From: Corynebacterium atrinae
GTDB lineage: Bacteria; Actinomycetota; Actinomycetes; Mycobacteriales; Mycobacteriaceae
DNA length: 64,000 nucleotides
Assembly: GCF_030408455.1 (NCBI RefSeq)
Contig: NZ_CP046977.1
Location: 620,001 to 684,000, forward strand
Reading direction: 5' to 3'
Positions 3,342 through 61,187 of the stretch are shown in pieces (positions within the stretch are counted from its first letter, which is position 1; each line of letters opens with the position of its first letter). Position numbers and translations under genes: made by a program. The notes below the pieces were generated by a model that worked only from the letters and a program-made list of their open reading frames with translations, searched no databases and was not told the DNA's origin.

Positions 3342-4409
3342 GTGAACCGTCCTCGCCGCCGCCTCCACACCCTCGCCTGGGGATCCATTCCGGTGCTCGC
3401 CCTCCTCGCACTGGTCTCTCTGGACCACGTTCCGGGCACCCAGATCTCCCTGACCGTGCCCTATGCGGCGGAAGGTCCGGGACCCATCTTCGACACGCTT
3501 GGCGACGTCGACGGCGTCCCCGTCGTCGAGATCGATGGCTCCGGCGAACCCGTCGACCCAACCTCGGGTCAACTGCAGATGACCACCGTCTCGGTGCGCA
3601 CCAACATGACCCTGGCGCAGGCGATGGGCCGGTGGCTGACCACCGATGACACCCTCGTGCCCATTGAGCAGATCTTCCCGCCCGACCTCACCCAGGAAGA
3701 AGTAGAGCAGTCGAATAAGCAGGCGTTTAGCTCCTCGGAGGCCTCCGCGACGGTAGCCGCCATGAATCACTTGGGCCGACCAGTGCAGGTCGTCGTGGCG
3801 GACACGGTGGAAAATTCCGCGGCCGTGGGAGTGCTCGACAGCGGGGATATCATTACCGGCGTAGACGGCCAGACCGTTGATCAGCCCGGCCAGGTGCAGG
3901 ATAAGGTGCGCGCGAAGAAACCCGGCGACTCGGTAGACCTAGAGTTGTTGCGCGATGGACAGCCGGAGGCGGTCACGGTGACGCTGGGGGAAACCCCCCA
4001 GGACCCGTCCGTGCCAATGCTCGGCATCCTCATGAACTCCGAACCCACCGACGGCATCGATGTCTCCTACAACCTGCAAGACGTCGGCGGTCCCAGCGCC
4101 GGGATGATTTTCTCCCTGGCGGTGATTGACAAACTCTCGCCCGGTGAGCTCAACGGCGGCCGCAACGTCGCCGGTACCGGCACCATCTCCGAAGACGGTA
4201 CGGTCGGGCCGATTGGCGGCATCGTGCACAAGGTGCGAGCCGCCCAGGAGGACGGTGCCGAATTGTTCTTGGCCCCCGCTGCGAACTGCTCAGAAGCGAC
4301 GAGCCGCGACCACGGTGACATGGTGATTGCCAAGGTATCCACCCTCGACGAGGCCATCACCGCGATGACCGATTTCGCCGCCGGCCGCGACGTCGCTACC
4401 TGCTCCTAG
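3342..4409 (+). CDS. YlbL-type PDZ-Lon serine protease, membrane anchored
   Basis: A 355-residue membrane-anchored protease. A basic N-terminus is followed by one hydrophobic segment (about 11-27). A PDZ domain spans about 135-215 (VLDSGDIITGVDGQTV). The C-terminal Lon-protease domain (about 225-345) contains the Ser-Lys dyad: S252 in VGGPSAGM and K297 in GGIVHKVRAA. The active site would face outside the membrane. Family members degrade or trim envelope proteins; Bacillus YlbL is linked to the SOS cell-division inhibitor. The start is GTG 3342; no ATG fits better. It pairs head-to-head with DUF2342 and ends 4 bp inside the lipoprotein gene coming from the other strand. Confidence 0.9.
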   Translation: MNRPRRRLHTLAWGSIPVLALLALVSLDHVPGTQISLTVPYAAEGPGPIFDTLGDVDGVPVVEIDGSGEPVDPTSGQLQMTTVSVRTNMTLAQAMGRWLTTDDTLVPIEQIFPPDLTQEEVEQSNKQAFSSSEASATVAAMNHLGRPVQVVVADTVENSAAVGVLDSGDIITGVDGQTVDQPGQVQDKVRAKKPGDSVDLELLRDGQPEAVTVTLGETPQDPSVPMLGILMNSEPTDGIDVSYNLQDVGGPSAGMIFSLAVIDKLSPGELNGGRNVAGTGTISEDGTVGPIGGIVHKVRAAQEDGAELFLAPAANCSEATSRDHGDMVIAKVSTLDEAITAMTDFAAGRDVATCS

Positions 4410-5068
4410 GAAGCGTCTTCGGTCGGTTCCGTCGGTTCCTTCGGAGCTGAGGAGGTGCGCTCCGCCAGACCCAGCTCGTAGATCTTCTTCTCCGGGTCCT
4501 CCCGGTCAGAAGACACCATCTGCTGCATGACCAGGCCCTTATCATTGTCCACTACCGTGATCACCGCCGTCGTTCCCAACGTCGACCAACCCACGACCCG
4601 AGTGCCGGTATCCTCCACCACCCGCGAGCTCCGCAGTTCGGTCAGCAGCTGTGTCGTCGACGCCGCCTTCGACTGCGAATCAAAGAATTGAAACTGGCCG
4701 ACCTCCGTGCCCGAGCACTCGTAGGCGTCATTGATCCCGCTCGGATTACACGAGTCAAAATGCTCAAACAGTGAGGCCGGCGCCAGCGAGCCAAAGAGTT
4801 TCTGGGCTTCCGCCACGTCCTTGGGCAGCCCGTTCTTCTTCGAAGAACTCGCCGTCGTGCTTGCCGACGCCGTCGTATCCTCTACCTCTGCCGAGGTGGT
4901 CGTCGTCTCAGCGGACTGCTGCGACTGCGACGTTGTCGCCGAGGCCGTCTCCGAGGGAGCGGGCGTGGGATCGCCCTCTTCATTGTTATTGCCACACGCG
5001 ACTAACCCCGCACTCAACGCAACGCAAGCGGCGAGAACAGAAAGGCGGGCAGTGGGGAAGTGGCGCAC
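4406..5068 (-). CDS. Secreted lipoprotein, function unknown
   Basis: A 220-residue lipoprotein precursor. The N-terminus has a basic start, a hydrophobic core and a lipobox ending LVAC (Cys at about 25) followed by GNN, so the mature protein should be lipid-anchored outside the membrane. Residues 30-80 are a Ser/Thr/Glu-rich linker; a compact domain of about 130 residues follows (LPKDVAEAQKLFGSLAP... to GLAE) with two cysteines (SCNP, ECSG) that could form a disulphide. The last 20 residues are Pro/Glu/Thr-rich. I do not recognise the domain. The stop overlaps the PDZ-Lon gene end by 4 bp. Confidence 0.8.
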   Translation of the reverse strand: MRHFPTARLSVLAACVALSAGLVACGNNNEEGDPTPAPSETASATTSQSQQSAETTTTSAEVEDTTASASTTASSSKKNGLPKDVAEAQKLFGSLAPASLFEHFDSCNPSGINDAYECSGTEVGQFQFFDSQSKAASTTQLLTELRSSRVVEDTGTRVVGWSTLGTTAVITVVDNDKGLVMQQMVSSDREDPEKKIYELGLAERTSSAPKEPTEPTEDAS

Positions 5069-5113
5069 GACGGGGATACTCCTCAGGGCTGATCGAGAGA
5101 CGTCCCGGCCAGT

Positions 5114-5653
5114 CTAGTCGACCTCTTCCATGTCCTGTTCCAAGCCATATCGCAGGGCCATGAGTACACCCGGTGCCACACCTGGGCCACCACGCAAATT
5201 TATTCGGTCTTCCGCGAAGGGATCCCCCTCGGCGAGTTCCTCTTCAGTGGGGCGCATTTGGAGCAGTGTCAGCTCCACGCCTTCAGCCCGCAGCACCCCG
5301 GAGTAAAGCCGGGCGGGGCGGGGAGCGGCGTCGGCTGCCTCGTCGGCGTCCGCAGTATCGCGGAACGAGATCTCCTGGGCCAAGATAACCCCCTCCACCT
5401 CCACTGGCCAGGCCAACCGCGAGAGGTAGTCGCCCAATTCGTCGGAGCCGGGGAGGATATGTGAGGGCAAGTCCTGGACCACCAGGGTCAGCGGAGAGGC
5501 CTCGTCCGGGTCTGCCAGCTGATCGGCTAAGAGCTCGGTTGGGACCAGCGCGAACAGCGTTGGCGGGGCATCCCACCCTTCGGCATGCACGAAATCGACG
5601 GCCTCAAGCATTGCCGCATTGAGGGCCGGAGTGGCGGAATCGGGTGCACTCAT
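5114..5653 (-). CDS. PPA1309 family protein
   Basis: A 179-residue acidic cytoplasmic protein without signal or membrane segments, matching the actinobacterial PPA1309 family: an N-terminal ALNAAMLEAVDFVHAEGWDAPPTLFALV, a middle WPVEVEGVILAQEISF and a C-terminal end LRGGPGVAPGVLMALRYG. Biochemical function is unknown. It is almost always found next to the UPF0182 membrane protein gene, here divergent and 88 bp away, which suggests a shared role or shared regulation. The start is ATG 5653. Confidence 0.8.
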   Translation of the reverse strand: MSAPDSATPALNAAMLEAVDFVHAEGWDAPPTLFALVPTELLADQLADPDEASPLTLVVQDLPSHILPGSDELGDYLSRLAWPVEVEGVILAQEISFRDTADADEAADAAPRPARLYSGVLRAEGVELTLLQMRPTEEELAEGDPFAEDRINLRGGPGVAPGVLMALRYGLEQDMEEVD

Positions 5654-8934: not shown

Positions 8935-8968
8935 AGAAACCCTCTCAACTTCGGTTGAGAGGGTTTCT
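8935..8968 (+). terminator. Terminator after tRNA-fMet
   Basis: A perfect 15-bp stem (AGAAACCCTCTCAAC and its complement) closes a TTCG tetraloop 7 nt after the tRNA. The 3' arm ends in GGGTTTCT, giving a short T tract. Confidence 0.85.
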
Positions 8969-9002
8969 GCGTTGTCGGCCCCGGGCGATGTCGCAAGGGG
9001 CA

Positions 9003-9088
9003 CCAAAAGGGCAATTCGAGTTCACCCATTAATCGAGTGGCGGGATCCGGGCACTCGATTAATGGGTGAAGTCATATCGCACTTTTGG
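9003..9088. repeat. 86-bp palindromic repeat, type A copy 1
   Basis: An intergenic inverted repeat whose inner arms TTCACCCATTAATCGAGTG and complement flank GCGGGATCCGGG. It is bounded by CCAAAAG on the left and CTTTTGG on the right. Copies 2 (41209-41294) and 3 (59588-59673) have the same 86-bp length. The two outer arms of this copy differ from each other: the left reads GGGCAATTCGAG, the right GTCATATCGCAC. No coding capacity. Confidence 0.9.
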
Positions 9089-9257
9089 GTCCAGGGGCCG
9101 ACCCATCCTTGCTGCGTCCCCATGGAGTGGTGGTTGTCGGTAGCAACCTGATTTTCGTAGCCGGTGAGCTGTACTTCTGTTGCGTCATCCGACCTCTACT
9201 TGAGGAAGTAGATCGGAACAAGACATAGGGCACTTCACTTCAGCACCCGCTGAGTCG
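9089..9257. other. Spacer between repeats, nothing recognised
   Basis: About 170 bp between the two palindromes. A small inverted repeat TCTACTT/AAGTAGA occurs near 9196-9213. I see no gene, RNA or promoter here. Confidence 0.5.
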
Positions 9258-9337
9258 GCGAAACCCGCACTTCCTAACAACTTGGCGGGTTAGGAAGGGG
9301 GATTGACCCCAGAGTTGTTAGGAAGTGCGGATTTTGG
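9258..9337. repeat. 80-bp palindromic repeat, type B copy 1
   Basis: Arms CCGCACTTCCTAACAACT (9265-9282) and its exact complement (9313-9330) enclose about 30 bp. It ends in TTTTGG on the right. A diverged second copy of equal length lies at 41049-41128. It sits just beyond the 3' end of the methyltransferase gene. Confidence 0.85.
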
Positions 9338-9360
9338 GCCCCCTCGTGAGGGCCACGTCC

Positions 9361-10113
9361 TCACTTCTGTCCGAGGTAGACCTCGGTGACATAGGGGATT
9401 GTCAGCTGGCCGTCGGCATCGCTCCATTCTGCCGTTGGTGCTTCGAGGGCAGCGGTGTACTCAGCTCCGTGGGTGTGCAGGGCTGCTTGTGATTGGGTGG
9501 AGGAGGCGCTCATTCCCATGAATTGCTCTGGCGTCTTCTTTTGGCTCCAGTGGAATTGCTTGAGGTTCGCCGTGGGGAAGGTCGTGAGCAACTCGGCCTG
9601 AATGTCGATCTTCCGGTAGTCGCGCTGGTACCCGGGTGACCAGGTCTCGAGGAGGGTCTCGTAGGCATCCGCGAAGCCGCCGGAGTGGTAGTCGCGGTTG
9701 TTTTGCATGATGGCCAAGCCGCCGTGCGTGCTCAGCGCCGCGTATGCCTCCGTGAGGAAGCGTTCCCGGTCCAACCACTGATAAGACTGCCCGGCGGTGA
9801 TGAGGTCCACGGGGCTAAGAGTCGATAGCAGCGCCTCGGCTTCGCCTTGGATCCACTCGAGATTGGGGAACTTCCTGGTGCCCACCTGAATCATGTCGTG
9901 GGAGTAGTCGATGCCGACGACTCGGCAGTCGGCGGGCAGGAGGGGGAGGAGTCCTTCAAGGACTATTCCGGTTCCGGCACCGACGTCGACGACGGTAGCG
10001 GCGGAGCCGAGGTCACACTCGGAGGAAATCCACTCGAAAGCGAAACGGGGGTAGCGGGGGCGTTCGCGGTCATAGTCCTCGGCTAGTCCATCGAAGGGAC
10101 AAGCGGTGCTCAT
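9361..10113 (-). CDS. Class I SAM-dependent methyltransferase
   Basis: A 250-residue cytoplasmic protein with a class I methyltransferase fold. Motif I is VVDVGAGTGIV at about 41-51, followed by the acidic residue of motif II in VVGIDYSHDMI and a later ITAGQSYQWLD segment typical of the YcgJ/UbiE-like Methyltransf_11 group. The start MSTACPFDGLAEDYDRERPRYP is usual for this group, where the YDRxRP stretch binds near the cofactor. Substrate is unknown. The gene stands alone, with palindromic repeats at its 3' end and a divergent secreted protease at its 5' end. This makes it a plausible non-core gene. Confidence 0.82.
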   Translation of the reverse strand: MSTACPFDGLAEDYDRERPRYPRFAFEWISSECDLGSAATVVDVGAGTGIVLEGLLPLLPADCRVVGIDYSHDMIQVGTRKFPNLEWIQGEAEALLSTLSPVDLITAGQSYQWLDRERFLTEAYAALSTHGGLAIMQNNRDYHSGGFADAYETLLETWSPGYQRDYRKIDIQAELLTTFPTANLKQFHWSQKKTPEQFMGMSASSTQSQAALHTHGAEYTAALEAPTAEWSDADGQLTIPYVTEVYLGQK

Positions 10114-41048: not shown

Positions 41049-41128
41049 TGAAAACCCGCTTTCGCTAACAACTTGGTGGGTTCGGAAGGCAGTTAGATGC
41101 CAGAGTTGTTAGCGAGTGCGGGTTTTGG
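41049..41128. repeat. 80-bp palindromic repeat, type B copy 2
   Basis: Arms at 41055-41073 and 41104-41122 pair with two mismatches (core CGCTAACAACT). Left end TGAAAA, right end TTTTGG. It has the same 80-bp length as the copy at 9258-9337. Confidence 0.85.
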
Positions 41129-41208
41129 GGTCGGCCTGGAAATCAGATGGCTCGGCCGACACACTCGTTCGCTACGGAGCCTTCGGCAACACGCTGCGCG
41201 CCTACGGG
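41129..41208. other. Spacer between repeats, nothing recognised
   Basis: 80 bp between the type B and type A palindromes. No ORF, RNA or promoter is apparent. Confidence 0.5.
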
Positions 41209-41294
41209 GTAAAAGTGCGATATGACTTCACCCATTAATCGAGTGGCGGGATCCGGGCACTCGATTAATGGGTGAAGTCATATCGCACTCTTGG
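41209..41294. repeat. 86-bp palindromic repeat, type A copy 2
   Basis: The most symmetrical copy: 31-bp perfect arms (41215-41245 and 41258-41288, starting GTGCGATATGACTTCACCC) enclose the 12-bp loop GCGGGATCCGGG. The ends are GTAAAAG and CTCTTGG. Confidence 0.92.
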
Positions 41295-41374: not shown

Positions 41375-42491
<1,117 letters not shown>

Positions 42492-59587: not shown

Positions 59588-59673
59588 TGAAAAGGGTGAT
59601 TTGACTTCACCCATTAATCGAGTGCTGGCAATCGGCTGCTCGATTAATGGGTCATCTCGAATTGCCCTTTTGG
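59588..59673. repeat. 86-bp palindromic repeat, type A copy 3
   Basis: It shares the core CTTCACCCATTAATCGAG and its partner CTCGATTAATGGGT with copies 1 and 2, but the loop is changed (TGCTGGCAATCGGCTG). The right outer arm reads CTCGAATTGCCC, the complement of the left outer arm of copy 1. It ends in CTTTTGG. Confidence 0.88.
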
Positions 59674-59799
59674 CATCCTCGATCATTCTGACCGAGGTGA
59701 AGGAGCTCAGAGGGTGCGGAGCCAGGCACGGATACGGCGGCGCGGGTTACGTCCTTTAGCGTGGTGTATCTGTAACTGCCGGTGACGACCCCCAGAGAA

Positions 59800-61187
59800 A
59801 ATGTGGGCGACCACCGCAGTACCTTTCGAATCAACTCTTACCTCTCCTCGAAAGGGAACCCACGATGGCCGCTGGCCCCCATTCTATCGACCCGACCACC
59901 TACCTCGACGATCTACTCTCCCAGGCCTCGCCGGACCTGATGCGCGAGATGCTCCAAAGCTTCATCAACCAGATTCTGTCGACCCAGGCCGACCAGGTCT
60001 GCGGCGCCGATTACGCCACCACCAGTGATGCTCGCGTCAACGTCCGCAATGGCTACCGCCACCGCGACCTCGACACCCGCGTCGGCACCGTGGATGTCGC
60101 CGTGCCGAAGCTGCGCACCGGCTCATTCTTTCCGGACTGGCTGCTAGAACGACGCACCCGAGCCGAACGGGCCCTGACCACCGTCATCGCCACTTGCTAC
60201 CTGAAGGGCGTGTCCACCCGCAGGATGAACGACCTGGTCGCCACCCTCGGGATATCCAACCTGTCGAAGTCGCAGGTATCCGAGATGGCCAAGGATCTTG
60301 ACTCCATGGTGGAGGATTTCCGCACCCGGCCGCTGGATACCAGCCCGTATCTCTACGTCTCGTGTGACGCCCTAACCATGAAAGTCCGCGAAGGCGGACG
60401 GGTGGTCAAGACCTCCGTGCTGCTGGCCACCGGCGTCAACGCCGAAGGCTACCGGGAATTGCTGGGCATGCAGGTCGCCACATCCGAGTCAGTCGCCTCA
60501 TGGACCGGCTTCTTCCGCGATCTCAAGGCCCGGGGCCTAGATGAGGTGTACCTGGTCACCAGTGATGCGCACGTGGGTATCCAGCACGCGATCGGCGAGG
60601 TCCTGCCGAATGCGTCGTGGCAGCGGTGCCGCACTCATTTTGCGAAGAACCTGTCCGGGCTGGTGTCGAAGACGCAGTGGCCGACATTATCGGCGATGTT
60701 CCACACGATCTTCCAGCAACCGGATGCAGCATCGGTGTGGGCCCAGACCCGCGAAGTCGTGACCTTCTGCGAGCAGAAGTTCCCGCACGTAGCCGACTAC
60801 CTGGAGGAGTCCCTAGACGAGCTGTTGGCCTTCACCCACGCCCCGAAGAGCGTGTGGAAAAAAGTCTGGTCGAATAACCCCACCGAGCGGCTGAACCGGG
60901 AGATCCGCCGGCGTACCGACGTCGTCGGGATCTTCCCCAACCGGGACGCCGTGGTGCGTCTGGTGGGCGCGGTCCTGGCCGAGCAGCATGACGATTGGAT
61001 ACAGCAGAAGCGCTACATGTCGCTCACGGCACTGGAGCAGACGAAGGCCATGATGAGCGCCACCGTCATCGATGCCGGCGAATCCACTCAGGAGGTCGCA
61101 TGAGTCGACACCACTACCGGGCTCGGGACGGCCCTTGCACCGTCATCCTGCCTGTTTTATCGAAAGGCAGAAACACCACTCCCGCGG
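59800..61187 (+). mobile_element. IS256-family insertion sequence, ends approximate
   Basis: An intact IS256-type transposase gene with 65 bp before and 84 bp after it. A weak pair of end sequences (GTGGGCGACCACC...CCTTTCGA on the left, the complement of GCGGGAGTGG...CCTTTCGA on the right) may be the terminal repeats. The borders and a target duplication could not be settled by eye. Confidence 0.45.
59865..61103 (+). CDS. IS256-family transposase
   Basis: A 412-residue mutator-type transposase. The N-terminal part has VCGADYATTSDARVNVRNGYRHRDLDTRVGTVDVAVPKLRTGSFFP; the DDE core shows Asp in LYVSCDAL, Asp in EVYLVTSDAHVGIQHAI and Glu in SNNPTERLNREIRRRTDVVGIFPNRDAVVRLV, with C..H (WQRCRTHFAKN) between. 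The frame is intact, so the element may be active. The region from 61104 to 61326 after it holds no gene that I can see. Confidence 0.94.
   Translation: MAAGPHSIDPTTYLDDLLSQASPDLMREMLQSFINQILSTQADQVCGADYATTSDARVNVRNGYRHRDLDTRVGTVDVAVPKLRTGSFFPDWLLERRTRAERALTTVIATCYLKGVSTRRMNDLVATLGISNLSKSQVSEMAKDLDSMVEDFRTRPLDTSPYLYVSCDALTMKVREGGRVVKTSVLLATGVNAEGYRELLGMQVATSESVASWTGFFRDLKARGLDEVYLVTSDAHVGIQHAIGEVLPNASWQRCRTHFAKNLSGLVSKTQWPTLSAMFHTIFQQPDAASVWAQTREVVTFCEQKFPHVADYLEESLDELLAFTHAPKSVWKKVWSNNPTERLNREIRRRTDVVGIFPNRDAVVRLVGAVLAEQHDDWIQQKRYMSLTALEQTKAMMSATVIDAGESTQEVA

What the first reader, a model, noticed from the sequence alone, without database searches (positions are those of the whole stretch)
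9003..9088. A family of exactly 86-bp intergenic palindromes (type A), three copies
Copies at 9003-9088, 41209-41294 and 59588-59673 have the same length, a shared core (TTCACCCATTAATCGAG and its complement), and CCAAAAG/CTTTTGG-type ends. Copy 2 has 31-bp perfect arms. Outer arms come in two versions (GTGCGATATGAC and GGGCAATTCGAG) that are mixed between the left and right ends of the copies, as if ends had been exchanged or the element inverted. Three copies in 64 kb suggest many in the genome. They could be miniature transposable elements, protein-binding sites or two-way terminators.
Basis: partly seen in the sequence, partly recalled or inferred. Interest (0 to 1): 0.75.

Follow-up and report, generated by a model that had tools for sequence, protein, structure and literature searches.

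The report
Palindromes paired with a nuclease gene
The 86-base palindromes are copies of a repeat of Corynebacterium that looks like a paired landing site for an unstudied DNA-cutting protein encoded beside some copies, a partnership resembling a known kind of selfish bacterial repeat but with a different enzyme.

Summary
In detail: three 86-bp palindromes in the window, 20 places in the genome, many right after stop codons. Arms are 35 nt; the variable centre is 16 nt in all 18 copies measured.

Covariance models find this architecture in 24 of 242 Corynebacterium genomes with clade-specific arm sequences. Centres fall into two classes, 16 and 27 nt, about one helical turn apart. Each arm is two direct 14-nt units.

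Eleven of 20 sites are filled at the orthologous place in C. testudinoris; eight are not. One copy looks like a recent duplicate and one centre is inverted.

The unexpected part is a gene for a ~310-aa protein (AbiEi-antitoxin-like fold plus Vsr/homing-type endonuclease domain) beside such palindromes in ten genomes (two loci). Among 60 other homologs, 27 have a strong palindrome nearby, against 15 of 250 background genes; arm sequences are unrelated but keep the 14-nt period.

Best reading: the arms are binding sites for this nuclease, in a REPIN/RAYT-like partnership. Binding, cutting and copying are inferred. No Y1 (RAYT) transposase was found in eight genomes; RNA-level folding gets no support. 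Plain operator sites are the main rival: in the more distant homologs the palindrome is mostly 5' of the gene.

The parts
9003..9088 (+). Palindrome copy 1 (86 bp): arm 9003-9037 (outer part GGGCAATTCGAG), 16-nt centre 9038-9053, arm 9054-9088 (outer part GTGCGATATGAC on the complement)
   Evidence: (model R2, 95.9 bits); orthologous site filled in C. testudinoris G257:C1:667730
41209..41294 (+). Palindrome copy 2 (86 bp): arm 41209-41243, centre 41244-41259 identical to copy 1, arm 41260-41294; both outer parts GTGCGATATGAC; probable recent copy of copy 1
   Evidence: centre 16 of 16; orthologous place in C. testudinoris holds a shorter unrelated stretch
59588..59673 (-). Palindrome copy 3 (86 bp), in minus orientation relative to copy 1: arms 59588-59622 and 59639-59673, centre 59623-59638
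   Evidence: orthologous site filled in C. testudinoris G257:C1:721200

Best explanation
The 86-bp palindrome is a dispersed copy of the cognate DNA site of a single-gene endonuclease. That protein (312 aa here, C1:1610587-1611525, minus strand, between truB and pptA, about 0.93 Mb from the window) has an AbiEi-antitoxin-like DNA-binding part and a Vsr / I-Bth0305I-type endonuclease domain (predicted). Shown here: the palindrome architecture (two 14-nt direct units per arm, inverted arms, centre 16 or 27 nt), gene-palindrome adjacency beyond background across species, and arms of gene-adjacent and dispersed copies that agree within clades. Inferred: AbiEi heads bind the units and meet across the centre on one face of the helix. 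Inferred and less sure: nicking or cutting at or near the palindrome drives repair copying, which keeps arms alike within a genome and now and then makes a new copy or flips the centre. So the pair works like REPIN/RAYT: a non-autonomous palindrome kept by a trans-acting gene and tolerated only in intergenic places such as gene ends. Binding of the protein to the palindromes I rate about 0.8; spreading or homogenising by the nuclease about 0.45.
Confidence: 0.55

Rival explanations
1. Dispersed operators: the palindromes are AbiEi-type operator sites. The one beside the gene autoregulates it, and the others regulate neighbours or are relics; the nuclease does no copying.
For: AbiEi and Rv2827c bind paired inverted repeats in their own promoters (PMC7319586, passages). 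In the truB-pptA clade the palindrome is 5' of the gene, and among the 40 weaker homologs 11 of the 14 strong palindromes are on the 5' side.
Against: In G021, G041, G049, G121, G226, G022, G235, G016, G103, G129, G120 and others the palindrome is on the 3' side. Of 20 G000 copies 11 lie within 100 bp of a gene 3' end and 4 within 100 bp of a 5' end. Up to 20 copies with shared arms need some way of spreading.
Confidence: 0.27
2. Bidirectional terminators or mRNA 3'-end hairpins: the hairpin ends or protects convergent transcripts, and its sequence spread by chance duplication.
For: Very stable folds (-47.6 to -80.8 kcal/mol). Positions right after stop codons, also beside orthologous genes in distant species (FMN reductase site: 17, 19, 13 and 21 bp after the stop in G000, G019, G139, G223).
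Against: No G.U excess over A.C in the transcript sense (57 against 51, P 0.63, 30 copies). No constant T-tract in G139 and G019 copies (by eye). Two fixed centre lengths and a 14-nt period are not needed for termination. Some copies are just 5' of genes.
Confidence: 0.1
3. MITE of an ordinary insertion sequence: a truncated transposon with about 35-bp inverted ends, moved by an IS transposase.
For: Inverted ends, several copies, one probable recent copy, an IS256-family transposase gene beside copy 3.
Against: Outside palindromes the core occurs only as three isolated 2-mismatch matches, at the level of the control pattern (2). Outermost bases vary and no clean target-site duplication was seen. 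The IS256 element is present at another place without the palindrome. Eleven of 20 sites are shared with the sister species.
Confidence: 0.04

Closest known systems
REPIN / RAYT (REP doublets with REP-associated tyrosine transposase)
   Same: Extragenic inverted doublets around a spacer, a trans-acting gene with a cognate copy next to it, repeat classes matched to the gene (PMC3116915, passages); long persistence (PMC8049555, start of abstract in listing).
   Different: No Y1 transposase in the 8 genomes searched; partner is an AbiEi-Vsr nuclease; each arm is two 14-nt direct units; centre fixed at 16 or 27 nt; at most 20 copies seen, while REPs usually exceed 100 (PMC2817692, start of abstract in listing).
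AbiEi autoregulatory operators (type IV toxin-antitoxin; S. agalactiae AbiEi, M. tuberculosis Rv2827c)
   Same: AbiEi-like fold; paired inverted repeats with gap classes about one turn apart (3 and 13 bp there, 16 and 27 nt here) (PMC7319586, passages).
   Different: Here joined to an endonuclease domain; arms with internal 14-nt repeats; sites dispersed over the chromosome and often 3' of the gene. A toxin partner gene was not looked for.
Vsr-fold homing endonuclease I-Bth0305I and Vsr
   Different: Not seen in an intron or intein; the associated DNA is a non-coding palindrome. What I-Bth0305I does is recalled.
MITEs, ERIC, NEMIS-type intergenic palindromes
   Same: Short, non-coding, intergenic, hairpin-forming (recalled).
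   Different: No parent IS or clean target-site duplication seen; conserved between clades as architecture, not sequence.

Membership tests
REPIN/RAYT | Extragenic inverted doublet with a short variable spacer, several copies | tested here: met
   20 places; none of the 20 inside a called ORF, though 3 overlap a called gene end by 4-23 nt; centre variable in sequence
REPIN/RAYT | Cognate Y1 (PF01797) transposase gene in the genome | tested here: not met
   0 of 8 genomes; control rings in 5 of 14
REPIN/RAYT | Repeat next to its partner gene | tested here: met
   met with a different partner, the AbiEi-Vsr gene
AbiEi operator | AbiEi-fold protein | tested here: met
AbiEi operator | Site in the promoter of its own gene | tested here: inconclusive
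   5' side in the truB-pptA clade and in 11 of 14 weaker homologs, 3' side in many of the best ones; promoters not mapped
AbiEi operator | Protein binds the repeats | not testable with these tools
   needs binding assays
MITE | Ends shared with an IS in the genome | tested here: not met
   core outside palindromes only as 3 isolated 2-mismatch matches, control 2
MITE | Target-site duplication at empty/filled pairs | tested here: inconclusive
   355290, 1198590 and 2327054 compared; no clean duplication, flanks diverged
Intrinsic terminator | GC-rich stem followed by a U-tract | tested here: inconclusive
   by eye the T-run is inside the stem in G000 and not constant in G139/G019; the terminator scan tool was not run
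Vsr/homing nuclease | PD-(D/E)XK Vsr-type domain | tested here: met
   PF18741 in 5 and PF04480 in 3 of 11 homologs at E 0.01; fold match
Vsr/homing nuclease | Cleaves a specific site and is copied into it | not testable with these tools
   no biochemistry

The most novel reading that the evidence does not exclude
A previously unnamed class of two-part genetic element in Corynebacterium: an AbiEi-Vsr nuclease and the palindromes it recognises, in which cutting by the nuclease copies and homogenises the palindromes, a homing-like drive of non-coding palindromes. Site and protein change specificity together, so that unrelated arm sequences keep one architecture.
Probability: 0.35. Interest if true: 0.95.

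Novelty: new variant of a known kind. Interest (0 to 1): 0.84.

Why it matters
In the passages I read, RAYT is the one partner named for dispersed bacterial palindromes. A second, unrelated partner would show that such partnerships arose more than once, would give a role to an abundant unnamed AbiEi-nuclease family (homologs in 169 of 242 Corynebacterium genomes), and would offer many protein-site pairs of different specificity for studying how recognition co-evolves.

Tried and rejected
Exact pattern scans of the named genome collection and of viral contigs found nothing (records near the window's genome may be left out there), and a nucleotide search found no relatives in 60 other genomes. 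Only structure-aware models reached them.

RAYT partner: not found in 8 genomes. Rfam: no palindrome hit at gathering on the window; only weak miRNA- and lncRNA-type hits at a lax threshold on 8940-9400. RNA-level selection: G.U against A.C is level. Order-wide R3 search: 2 of 397 genomes, both Corynebacterium, with strict filters and few candidates scored per genome. An early idea of a third centre class of 38-39 nt in C. hylobatis was dropped: anchored on the inner motif it is 27. Fold library rows other than AbiEi and the Vsr group were not followed.

Mistakes corrected: I reverse-complemented loci that were already in plus orientation; fixes the coordinates. My simple gene caller missed the nuclease gene in G000, G257, G223 and G049; searches recovered it, so context counts are approximate. 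One search stopped with an error after part of its output. The 32-arm period test used hand-trimmed arms; the less selected repeat is, which dropped 2 of 22 arms shorter than 20 nt and merged similar ones to 15. In one search I filled G002's dispersed set with G212 copies, so G002 is left out of the 12-of-13 count; the clades there are my own grouping. Searches scanned different flank lengths (700 and 350 bp) and slightly different loop ranges; the 13 hits counted lie within 135 bp. The 40 homologs were picked from the capped list, mostly by score, skipping some look-alikes and contig-edge ones.

Papers: PMC5217627, PMC2267715, PMC12306157, PMC3710099, PMC7319586 and PMC3116915 were seen as passages only; PMC8049555 and PMC2817692 as the start of the abstract in a listing. 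PMC5217627 reports spaced motifs in many genomes; the passages shown for Corynebacterium are CRISPR repeats. The listings of ten paper searches showed no description of this pair; subscription journals and most preprints are not held. Novelty is claimed only against these.

Full report
WHAT IS THERE. In the own genome model R2, built from 19 copies (A1), finds 20 places. None of the 20 lies inside a gene called by a simple script; three overlap a called gene end by 4 to 23 nt. Eleven of 20 lie within 100 bp of a gene's 3' end. Four lie within 100 bp of a 5' end: three, plus 1611607, whose neighbouring gene the script had missed. In some copies one arm has 14 extra bases.

RELATIVES. Exact patterns and nucleotide search saw the element only in this genome: 1 of 151 and 1 of 61 genomes, and nothing in named genome or viral contigs. 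Model R2 found it in 8 of 242 Corynebacterium genomes. The broader model R3 found it in 24 of 242, and in no other genus among 397 genomes of the order, under strict filters. The arms differ in sequence by clade: G000/G257 GTGCAATTCGAGTTCACCCATTAATCGAG; G102 CCCCAATTCGACTTCACCAATCAATCGAG; G139/G019/G223 GGGGTATTCGAGTTGGGGCATTAATCGGG; G121 AAATGCCCGCCAAGAGATGCCCGTCAGTCGAG (typical arms). Both arms change together: 219 both-side changes against 85 in shuffles of a 31-sequence alignment; the same holds within G000 alone, 36 against 20.

ARCHITECTURE. Anchored on the inner CGAG-like motif the centre is 16 nt in 54 and 27 nt in 25 of 88 measured copies; the other nine were 17 (3), 26 (3), 28 (1) and 13 (2), and nine of 97 copies could not be measured. 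Models built from 16- and 27-nt members favour those lengths, but the C. hylobatis and C. lemuris copies were found by an arm pattern alone, and 11 of their 15 measured centres are 27. Each arm is two direct copies of a 14-nt unit. Across 32 arm families identity at offset 14 is 0.51 against 0.255 shuffled (hand-trimmed arms). In 15 arms from the later scan it is 0.47 against 0.26, and no other offset exceeds 0.29. The two centre classes differ by 11, about one turn. Together these look like phased protein sites on duplex DNA. A transcript-level signature is absent: among 30 of 60 copies with exactly one gene end nearby, G.U and A.C mismatches are level at 57:51.

HISTORY. Of 20 places in G000, 11 are filled at the orthologous place in C. 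testudinoris (two of these with flanks alignable on one side only). Eight are not filled: three show a gap, one a shorter unrelated stretch, one what I read as a single-arm remnant, and three have alignable flanks with no palindrome between. One was not resolved. Two sites are filled even in distant species. At the FMN reductase site the palindrome lies 17, 19, 13 and 21 bp after the stop codon in G000, G019, G139 and G223. At the truB-pptA site a palindrome is present in G000, G257, G019, G139, G223, G018 and G060. Copying is suggested by 629003 and 661209, which share all 16 centre bases; the second site is not filled in the sister species. At 1831263/1897260 the centre is 15 of 16 identical only when inverted. 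At 1149609/1196211 both arms changed by matching pairs while the centre kept 14 of 16 bases. No clean target-site duplication was seen.

TESTING THE LINK. The ten discovery genes lie beside family palindromes but occupy only two syntenic loci: truB-pptA in seven genomes, another in G021, G041 and G049. I therefore tested other homologs with a sequence-blind inverted-repeat score (+1 match, -1.5 mismatch). Around the 20 of the 30 best homologs that were not discovery genes, a palindrome of score 18 or more is near in 13; one of these, G121, was in the search alignment. Around 40 weaker ones it is near in 14. Background genes had it in 15 of 250, and some of those hits are this element or the type-B palindrome (P 3e-12). 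Some of the 60 are close relatives of each other (G022/G226/G235; G034/G244/G176/G070), so they are not independent trials. Among the 14, 11 are 5' of the gene; all 13 counted are 3'. In 12 of 13 genomes the gene-adjacent arm matches the genome's other copies better than those of any other clade; G021 is the exception, and within clades the nearest relative sometimes matches slightly better. All 24 palindrome-bearing genomes have a homolog, but so do 145 of the other 218.

HOW IT PROBABLY WORKS. AbiEi proteins bind 23-bp inverted repeats 3 or 13 bp apart, and two of them did not bind each other's sites (PMC7319586, passages). By analogy protein heads on each arm, facing each other across a phased centre, would occupy the palindrome. 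The nuclease could then nick or cut, and repair from another copy or from the opposite arm would keep arms alike, flip centres and occasionally seed a new copy. Binding I rate 0.8 likely, the copying step 0.45; neither has been shown. The logic is that of REPIN/RAYT (PMC3116915, passages), but the RAYT test fails, so it is not filed there.

VERDICT. The palindrome is real, old and clade-tuned, and comes with a plausible cognate nuclease. In the listings of ten paper searches I saw no report of this pairing. Interest 0.84.

Noticed in passing
window 9261-9338 and 41052-41129: A second palindrome family (type B, AAAACCCGCACTTCCTAACAACT-like, with A- and T-runs at its ends, terminator-like) lies 172 and 79 bp from type A copies 1 and 2 and also just upstream of the 355290 copy; similar stretches occur in G257.
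   Followed up: partly
window 59744-61103: An IS256/Mutator-family transposase element; a second copy identical over 1360 bp lies at C1:78780-80139 of the same genome; in C. testudinoris the palindrome of copy 3 is present without it.
   Followed up: partly
L187, beside ORF 3737-5393 (G257, C. testudinoris): A different long palindrome, beginning GCGTGAAATCACC and ending GCGTGAGATCACGC, somewhat like the one beside a G204 homolog (L389): perhaps a second nuclease-palindrome pair.
   Followed up: no
L171/L318, L317 (G037), L176/L323 (G212), L180 (G175): Longer tandem arrays of a 14-nt unit (ATGCTTACYCCAGG-like) flank the centre on one or both sides.
   Followed up: no
G000 copies 1611607, 1611755, 225902, 1198590, 1312842: One arm carries an extra 14-nt unit; the two copies beside the nuclease gene are a tandem pair with centres alike in 15 of 16 bases.
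   Followed up: partly
L226, about 4696: C. phoceense has a different palindrome with a 7-nt centre after pptA, terminator-like.
   Followed up: no
window 41987-42165: A c-di-AMP riboswitch match overlapping the 5' end of the resuscitation-promoting-factor-like ORF 41375-42142.
   Followed up: no
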